42,138 nucleotides of DNA, from assembly GCA_029941135.1 (NCBI GenBank), contig JAPYRI010000015.1:1-42138 (forward strand), in the 5' to 3' direction. Positions 36,520 through 38,910 of this stretch are shown here, piece after piece; the stretch's first letter is position 1; every line of letters starts with the position of its first letter. The notes beneath the pieces were generated by a model, which was not told where the DNA came from, searched no databases, and saw only the letters and a list, made by a program, of their open reading frames with translations. Source of the DNA: Alphaproteobacteria bacterium. Lineage in GTDB: Bacteria > Pseudomonadota > Alphaproteobacteria > JAPYRI01. The position numbers were made by a program, and so were the translations under genes.

Positions 36520-36608
<89 letters not shown>

Positions 36609-36901
36609 CTTTTCCTTAAAATATTGTTAAATATCAATTAGATGAACTTATTTATATGAATTCAGCCCCCCAAATAGCCCCCATTCTTGATTGAAATTGC
36701 CGGATTTAATGTTCCGGCGGGCTTCTGCGGGGAGAGATATTCCTAATTTCTCAATACGACCAACAACAATTTCACATACGGCATTAGCCAAGGGTCAGAT
36801 TGGCATAACTGCGACATTGTGGAATCGCGGTGATCAACCTAGAGTCTCAATATTGCAATGGGGCAGAATTCACCGTCTGCAAGGCCGGGAGACTAGGCGA
36901 A

Positions 36902-37672
36902 ATGGACGAATTTGATTATTGGCGCTTGTGTGATGACTTATCCATTTTTCAGGCTGCGCTATTGGTTATCGGCGAAGACCCGTCAGGAGATAACAGCTAT
37001 ATTGAGGGTTGGGAGGTTCATAAAAGGCCCCATGGCTATGAAGCTGCGAAAACCGCGATTGCAAATGGTTTGATGCGTTCGGTAATTGAAGGAGAGCTCA
37101 AATTCGAACTTAAATACGACCTCAATGGAAATGAGGTAGGCGGAACGAACGTCATTGATGCGCTTTCCTCAATTGTCTCAGTCGAATCCCTCCGGAAATT
37201 CTTGACAGCGCGGGGGATCACCACGGGATTCTTTTTCCCCAGCGGGTTTGATAATCGCAGTTATCTCGACCGCGACAATTCGTGTTACGCGCCAAAACTG
37301 GCAACCGCGCTCGCCCGCGCCATGGTATCCCGCTGGGGCATGTCCGAAAGCGTGGGCCCCATTGACCTGCGCGAAAGTGATGAGCATCCGTTCCTTGGCC
37401 GTGAGATAGCCCAACCAAGGCGCTTCAGCGAGACCACCGCCCATGAAGTGGATGAAGCGGTGGGCAAAATTCTGCGTGAGGCCGAAGCCCGGGATGTTGA
37501 ACTTGTGCGCGCCCACCGCCTTAGTCTCGACTGCCTGGTTACTGCACTTGAAGAGCGCGAAACTCTGGACGCAGCCCAGATAGAAACCTACTTGGGCGCG
37601 GCCAAGCATCGCCCGGCACCACCGCGCAGTGACGATGAAACCAGATCGAAAAGCAAAGCAGAAACCGGCTGA
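36902..37672 (+). CDS. Chimeric hypothetical protein: accessory N-terminal domain fused to an FtsH/M41 C-terminal tail
   Basis: N-half MDEFDYWRLCDDLSIFQAALLVIGEDPSGDNSYIEGWEVHKRPHGYEAAKTAI...RGITTGFFFPSGFDNRSYLDRDNSCYAPKL. C-half ALARAMVSRWGMSESVGPIDLRESDEHPFLGREIAQPRRFSETTAHEVDEAVGKILREAEARDVELVRAHRLSLDCLVTALEERETLDAAQIETYLGA, matching the FtsH C-terminal pattern. Confidence 0.75.
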   Translation: MDEFDYWRLCDDLSIFQAALLVIGEDPSGDNSYIEGWEVHKRPHGYEAAKTAIANGLMRSVIEGELKFELKYDLNGNEVGGTNVIDALSSIVSVESLRKFLTARGITTGFFFPSGFDNRSYLDRDNSCYAPKLATALARAMVSRWGMSESVGPIDLRESDEHPFLGREIAQPRRFSETTAHEVDEAVGKILREAEARDVELVRAHRLSLDCLVTALEERETLDAAQIETYLGAAKHRPAPPRSDDETRSKSKAETG

Positions 37673-37713: not shown

Positions 37714-38910
37714 ATGAAACGGATTGTTGTTGTCGGTGGCGGCTTCGCCGGCATGTGGGGGGCGCTGGCCGCCGCGCGAAAGATCGATCAGTCAAATGTG
37801 GCGGCTGGTGAATTTGAGATATCTCTGATCAATCGGGACGGCTTTCACTGCATCCGGCCGCGCCTTTATGAAAATGACCTGACTGATGCCCGCATCCCCT
37901 TGGCGCCGGTGTTGGAACCCGCGGGCGTAACGCTGATCGAAGGCGAAGTGCAGGCAATTCACCCCGAGGCGAACCACATCAGCGTAGGCACCGGCAGCAA
38001 CAGCCGACAACTACCTTATGACCGGCTTATATATGCAGCGGGCAGCATTTTGAGCATGCCTGATATCCCCGGTGCCGCCGAGCATACTTTCAACATCGAC
38101 ACTTTCGACAACGCCGAGCGCCTGAATACTCATCTGAAACACTTGCCCGACCTTGCCGACACAGAAGGCCGGTTTGCCGTGGTAGTGGTGGGCGCGGGTT
38201 TCACCGGGCTCGAGATAGCCTGCGAACTGCCAGCCCGCTTGTCAGCTCTTGCGGGCGCAGCCCAAGCGCGCGTGATCCTGGTCGATCAAGCGCCGGTAAT
38301 GGGCGCAACACTAGGGTCCAATCCAAGGCAGGAGATTGAGCGCGTTGTCAATTCCCTTGGCATCGAATCCCGCCTTGGTGTCCAGATTTCCCGGATCGAT
38401 CCGGACAGCCTGACCTTCGACGATGGCAGCAAAATTCAAACCAATACGGTCATTTGGACTGGCGGCGCCCTGGGCAATCCGATCGGCCGCAACCTGGGCA
38501 TTGAACTGGATGATCTGGGCCGGATACCCGTGGACGGACAACTTCGCGTGGCCGGGCTGCCTGACATCTTCGCCGCAGGTGACGCCGCGCGCGTCCCGGT
38601 TGACGACACCCACATTGCAGTTATGTCCTGCCAGCATGCCATGCCCCAGGGTAAGTACGCCGGCCACAACGCCGCCGCTGATCTGCTGGGCGAACCGCTT
38701 CTTGACTATCGTCAACCAACCTACGTTACCTGCTTGGGACTGGGACCCAGCAACGCCATTTACACGGAAGGCTGGGAGCGCGTGGTGCGCAACACCGACG
38801 CCCACCAACTGAAGCGCGATATCGTCACCCAGTGGATCTATCCGCCTTCAAGCGGCGATCGTGCCGAAATATTTGCGGCGGCCGAGCCAGTGACCGTGGA
38901 TTATTACTGA
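37714..38910 (+). CDS. NAD(P)/FAD-dependent oxidoreductase (NDH-2-like)
   Basis: KRIVVVGGGFAGMWGALAAAR, VVVVGAGFTGLEIACELPARL, LPDIFAAGDAARVPVDDTHIAVMSCQHAMPQGKYAGHNAAADL. Confidence 0.9.
   Translation: MKRIVVVGGGFAGMWGALAAARKIDQSNVAAGEFEISLINRDGFHCIRPRLYENDLTDARIPLAPVLEPAGVTLIEGEVQAIHPEANHISVGTGSNSRQLPYDRLIYAAGSILSMPDIPGAAEHTFNIDTFDNAERLNTHLKHLPDLADTEGRFAVVVVGAGFTGLEIACELPARLSALAGAAQARVILVDQAPVMGATLGSNPRQEIERVVNSLGIESRLGVQISRIDPDSLTFDDGSKIQTNTVIWTGGALGNPIGRNLGIELDDLGRIPVDGQLRVAGLPDIFAAGDAARVPVDDTHIAVMSCQHAMPQGKYAGHNAAADLLGEPLLDYRQPTYVTCLGLGPSNAIYTEGWERVVRNTDAHQLKRDIVTQWIYPPSSGDRAEIFAAAEPVTVDYY

What the first reader, a model, noticed from the sequence alone, without database searches (positions are those of the whole stretch)
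36902..37672. In-frame chimera: accessory hypothetical domain joined to an FtsH C-terminal tail lacking ATPase and zinc site
The second half (about 37312-37610) reads as the FtsH M41 C-terminal helical region (compare LARNMVTQWGFSEKLGP...FLGRS...SDETARIIDQEV...L...YETIDAPQI). AAA+ motifs, HEXXH and the upstream Asp zinc ligand are all absent. The first half is an unrelated accessory-type domain ending near YAPKL, the likely natural end of that domain. Base composition also shifts from relatively AT-rich (N-half) to GC-rich (C-half) near the junction at ~37290-37325. Either this is an internal deletion scar that fused a small gene to the 3' end of an ftsH-like gene, or it is a real adaptor or decoy that uses the FtsH hexamerisation tail.
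Basis: partly seen in the sequence, partly recalled or inferred. Interest (0 to 1): 0.7.

Follow-up and report, generated by a model that had tools for sequence, protein, structure and literature searches.

The report
Deletion scar fusing two broken genes
This open reading frame is most likely a leftover of a DNA deletion that joined the front of a mobile-element gene to the back end of a second, accessory FtsH protease gene; it is real as sequence but probably has no designed function.

Summary
The ORF at 36902-37672 is a chimera, as reported. Residues 134-228 match the last half of Pfam Peptidase_M41 (73 bits). They belong to a second FtsH clade, 60-74% identical to full-length ~640-aa proteins, and not to this genome's own FtsH (38%). 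Residues 1-137 match a ~200-280-aa family that Pfam, NCBIfam, PHROGs and PADLOC do not cover. Its gene lies next to a tyrosine integrase in tRNA-inserted elements. Here too it lies just downstream of a tRNA-Ser. In all intact relatives the protein runs on ~70-80 residues past YAPKL (AW..GKTPKQAL..KWL..AKVANW..GGAPKTP). Those residues are missing here, so YAPKL is not a natural end. The integrase, the rest of the element and the ftsH2 head are not found in the held genome. The two genes meet inside a shared Ala-Thr-Ala stretch (37301-37309). Best explanation: an illegitimate deletion, perhaps at short homology, from inside a tRNA-Ser island into a downstream ftsH2, which happened to stay in frame. 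A decoy or adaptor role is unlikely: no other genome searched has this architecture, and the joint is predicted to be poorly ordered. The claimed composition break is not significant. An assembly error cannot be excluded. Interest low.

The parts
36520..36608 (+). tRNA-Ser (CGA), the presumed attachment site of the lost element
   Evidence: ARAGORN, Rfam tRNA 57.5 bits; relatives of the N-half gene sit next to tRNAs with an integrase between
36609..36901 (.). 293-bp AT-richer spacer between the tRNA and the chimera, where relatives have the ~1.2-kb integrase; no integrase remnant detected
   Evidence: tblastn of six integrases against the spacer gives only chance-level matches; GC about 0.40-0.50
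36902..37300 (+). 5' part (residues 1-133) of an integrase-adjacent island gene, 3' end missing
   Evidence: matches L004/L106, L082, L083, L090-L094 and S. meliloti pSymB hypothetical protein
37301..37309 (+). junction: codons GCA ACC GCG (Ala-Thr-Ala) fit both parents (element KLA[A/T]A, FtsH2 xATxLARAM); upper bound of the crossover interval
   Evidence: codon comparison of both sides
37301..37672 (+). 3' end of a second-clade ftsH (ftsH2): C-terminal helical part of M41 plus its stop codon
   Evidence: PF01434 hit; 66% to the tail of L034 FtsH2; in the FtsH2 clade with L032, support 99/84
37714..38910 (+). Downstream gene, FAD/NAD(P) (type II NADH dehydrogenase-like) oxidoreductase; intact neighbour, not a known neighbour of ftsH2
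   Evidence: Pyr_redox_2 143 bits; no locus in hand pairs it with ftsH2

Best explanation
A tRNA-Ser-associated integrated element carried a conserved integrase-neighbour gene, and a second, accessory ftsH (ftsH2) lay downstream in the same orientation. An illegitimate deletion, possibly guided by up to 9 bp of shared sequence coding Ala-Thr-Ala, removed the 3' third of the element gene, the rest of the element, any intervening DNA and the first ~80% of ftsH2. It joined the two remnants in frame (one chance in three). The integrase was lost in the same or another event, or was never upstream of this copy. The product, if made, lacks the ATPase, HEXXH and zinc Asp and the C-terminal third of the first protein, so it is most likely a non-functional or weakly expressed fusion pseudogene. 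Shown: homology of both halves, truncation of both relative to intact relatives, position after a tRNA, absence of the ftsH2 head and of integrase relatives from the held genome. Inferred: the order of events, the microhomology route, and loss of function.
For: FtsH tail only, from a clade distinct from the resident FtsH. Intact N-family members extend past YAPKLAAA with conserved helices (AlphaFold helices 138-152, 162-177 and 189-199, mean pLDDT by block 67-87). Arrangement tRNA - Arm-DNA-bind tyrosine integrase - this gene in L082, L083, L102, L103, L104 and L106, and integrase - gene in S. meliloti pSymB. ftsH2 head not elsewhere in the genome. No integrase of that type in the genome, with positive controls. 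Joint within ATA shared by both families. Fusion absent from the other genomes searched. Chimera model has low confidence around residues 118-176.
Against: No pre-deletion relative or empty site was found, so the events are reconstructed and not observed. No copy of the tRNA 3' end was found downstream as attR (the other hits are tRNA genes), though the deletion would have removed it. The tail shows no accelerated decay (end branch 0.23, median 0.24), which fits a recent event or retained constraint.
Confidence: 0.85

Rival explanations
1. A functional adaptor or decoy: the island-derived domain uses the FtsH C-terminal helices to enter and poison or redirect FtsH hexamers.
For: The frame is open through the FtsH stop, the tail is not visibly decayed, and FtsH paralogues can hetero-oligomerise (P. 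aeruginosa FtsH1/FtsH2, PMC6629908).
Against: No second genome with this architecture in 385 class genomes or in the genome-contig scan. The N-domain is truncated inside its conserved helical region. Low predicted order across the joint. The AAA ring and the membrane part, which bring FtsH subunits together, are missing.
Confidence: 0.05
2. Assembly artefact: the contig of this draft genome (178 contigs) wrongly joins an island contig to an ftsH2 contig.
For: Draft assembly; neither the rest of the element nor the ftsH2 head is found elsewhere in it, and no second independent sequence of the junction was found (viral contigs only).
Against: The shared stretch is at most about 9 bp, shorter than typical assembler overlaps, and the join is in frame. 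If both parents were present as sequence, their other halves should appear on other contigs and do not.
Confidence: 0.08
3. An intact gene of a described single family with this architecture.
For: None.
Against: Pfam and NCBIfam see only the M41/FtsH tail, PHROGs (N-half) and PADLOC (whole ORF) see nothing; every relative is either an N-family protein or an FtsH.
Confidence: 0.01

Closest known systems
FtsH/M41 AAA+ zinc metalloprotease, second (accessory) clade of Rhodospirillales, Gammaproteobacteria and others
   Same: C-terminal ~95 residues of the M41 domain, 60-74% identity to L032-L045
   Different: Membrane segment, AAA+ module, HEXXH and third zinc ligand all absent
Uncharacterised integrase-adjacent protein (M[D/E]xxDYWRLCDELSI...YAPKLAAA...AKVANWxPxGGAPKTP) of tRNA-inserted elements
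   Same: Residues 1-137, 28-48% identity, mostly start-to-start match, position after a tRNA
   Different: Conserved C-terminal ~70-80 residues missing; no integrase upstream
Gene-fusion pseudogenes left by illegitimate deletions in decaying genomic islands
   Same: Two truncated unrelated genes joined at a short shared sequence next to a tRNA
   Different: Happens to be in frame; parent arrangement not observed

Membership tests
FtsH protease | AAA+ module (Walker A/B, SRH) | tested here: not met
   Only the last part of TIGR01241 (504-598) and PF01434 (94-189) match
FtsH protease | HEXXH and downstream Asp zinc ligand | tested here: not met
   Alignment starts after SSGADDDI
FtsH protease | C-terminal helical part of M41 | tested here: met
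   73 bits, E 3.6e-20; PDB FtsH chains matched at residues 133-231
Integrase-adjacent island protein family | N-terminal region DYWRLCDELSI ... GFFFP ... YAPKL | tested here: met
Integrase-adjacent island protein family | C-terminal AW...GKTPKQAL..KWL...AKVANW...GGAPKTP | tested here: not met
   Replaced by the FtsH tail
Integrase-adjacent island protein family | Tyrosine integrase directly upstream, next to a tRNA | tested here: not met
   tRNA-Ser present; no integrase in the spacer or genome
Fusion pseudogene from deletion | Both halves truncated relative to intact relatives | tested here: met
Fusion pseudogene from deletion | Not conserved as a fusion | tested here: met
   Only this genome among those searched; closely related genomes were not available
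Fusion pseudogene from deletion | No expression or phenotype | not testable with these tools
   -

The most novel reading that the evidence does not exclude
A newly born fusion protein that is kept because its FtsH2-derived helices let a fragment of an island protein bind or poison resident FtsH hexamers.
Probability: 0.04. Interest if true: 0.6.

Novelty: new member of a known kind. Interest (0 to 1): 0.17.

Why it matters
As a scar it is ordinary: it shows how an island next to a tRNA and an accessory ftsH can be lost together, leaving an in-frame ORF that annotation would call 'hypothetical' or 'FtsH family'. It warns against reading such domain chimeras as adaptors without relatives. The useful by-product is the uncharacterised integrase-adjacent family in tRNA elements, some with defence cargo.

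Tried and rejected
Composition as a junction marker (GC3 breakpoint not significant). Search for attR copies of the tRNA end (only tRNA genes). Integrase remnants in the spacer (chance level). Synteny of ftsH2 with the downstream oxidoreductase (none; ftsH2 has no conserved neighbour). N-family in viral contigs and phages (none). Fold search of the N-family model (no match with E <= 0.001, best 2.6). Other short ftsH2-tail ORFs (L005, L123) proved to be contig-edge truncations. Two paper searches on ftsH fusions and second ftsH genes gave at best island-borne FtsH xenologues, and one on integrase-adjacent genes listed nothing evidently on this family (titles and abstracts only).

Full report
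OBSERVATION. The ORF 36902-37672 is present (the mechanical list starts it at an upstream GTG, 36830). Its residues 134-228 match PF01434 Peptidase_M41 over positions 94-189 of 191 (E 3.6e-20), the end of TIGR01241 and the corresponding part of solved FtsH chains (residues 133-231). Nothing of the AAA+ module or HEXXH is left, and the join lies just after the place where FtsH relatives carry SSGADDDI.

C-HALF. The genome holds one full-length FtsH (G000:C3), only 38% identical to this tail. The tail is 60-69% identical by local alignment to full-length ~640-aa proteins in Rhodospirillales, Kiloniellales, Pelagibius and many Gammaproteobacteria. A tree of 90 tails splits into two groups with support 100/99: one contains the resident FtsH, the other contains the window tail, which pairs with L032 (74% over the tree columns, support 99/84). 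Its end branch (0.23) equals the median (0.24), so there is no sign of long decay. A full-length FtsH2 query finds in the own genome only the canonical FtsH, this tail and weak AAA hits: the head of ftsH2 is gone from the assembly.

N-HALF. Residues 1-137 match proteins of about 200-280 aa. No Pfam or PADLOC family covers them, and PHROGs gave nothing convincing. In L082 (tRNA-Phe), L083 (tRNA-Leu), L103 (tRNA-Leu), L104 (tRNA-Phe), L106/L004 (tRNA-Ser) and L102 (tRNA-SeC) the order is tRNA - Arm-DNA-bind type tyrosine integrase - this gene (Pfam domains tested on L103). In L102 one extra ORF lies between. The S. meliloti pSymB record independently annotates integrase - hypothetical protein - AlpA regulator. 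Several carry a helix-turn-helix gene and a second tyrosine recombinase further on, and two carry defence-type cargo: a type III restriction-modification pair in L101, an HmaA-like helicase in L102. L101 has no integrase or tRNA directly upstream, so integrase absence has a precedent. In the window the gene fragment starts 293 bp after a tRNA-Ser, with no integrase remnant between and no integrase of that type anywhere in the genome (positive controls).

JUNCTION. Every intact N-family member continues past YAPKL(A)(A/T)A with AW...GKTPKQAL..KWL...AKVANW..GGAPKTP. The AlphaFold model of a full member places a helix starting at that very point and two more after it (residues 138-152, 162-177, 189-199). 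YAPKL is therefore not a natural end. In FtsH2 the matching place reads DDIxxATxLARAM. The window reads AAA CTG | GCA ACC GCG | CTC GCC CGC: Ala-Thr-Ala fits both parents, so the crossover lies within or beside 37301-37309, with at most about 9 bp of possible microhomology.

ALTERNATIVES. The fusion occurs in no other genome searched: 385 class genomes with each half and the genome-contig scan. Short ftsH2-tail frames in L005 and L123 are contig-edge truncations. The chimera model is confident in the N core and in the tail helices 177-231 but poor around residues 118-176; that alignment was imperfect, so this is weak evidence. No promoter-like site was found on the coding strand (weak). These points disfavour a conserved adaptor. 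Composition does not mark the junction. An assembly join cannot be excluded without reads, but the tiny overlap, the preserved frame and the absence of the missing halves elsewhere make it less likely.

CONCLUSION. An in-frame deletion scar between an island gene next to tRNA-Ser and a second-clade ftsH, probably without function. Interest is low; the by-product of note is the unnamed integrase-adjacent family.

Noticed in passing
L082:6001-6735; L083:6001-6633; L102:4013-4627; L103:4174-4812; L106:2762-3430; L101:4973-5623 and L104:4236-4838 (minus strand); L147:4968-5810: An uncharacterised protein family (DYWRLCDELSI...YAPKLAAA...AKVANWxPxGGAPKTP) sits directly or closely after the tyrosine integrase of tRNA-inserted elements, some with restriction-modification or helicase defence cargo; no Pfam or PADLOC model and no convincing PHROG.
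   Followed up: partly
L146:3063-3866 (Leisingera sp. M527 plasmid NZ_CP081042.1): An independent N-terminally truncated ftsH2 remnant, annotated 'hypothetical protein', matching FtsH2 from about residue 347 on and next to metal-transport genes: accessory ftsH2 copies may be prone to loss.
   Followed up: partly
window:37301-37672 compared with G000:C3:59107-60858: Two well-separated FtsH clades (canonical and FtsH2); FtsH2 has no conserved gene neighbours in the 49 loci examined.
   Followed up: partly
L101:4973-5623 (minus strand): A copy of the integrase-adjacent gene without an integrase or tRNA directly upstream but with the HTH gene and second recombinase downstream.
   Followed up: no
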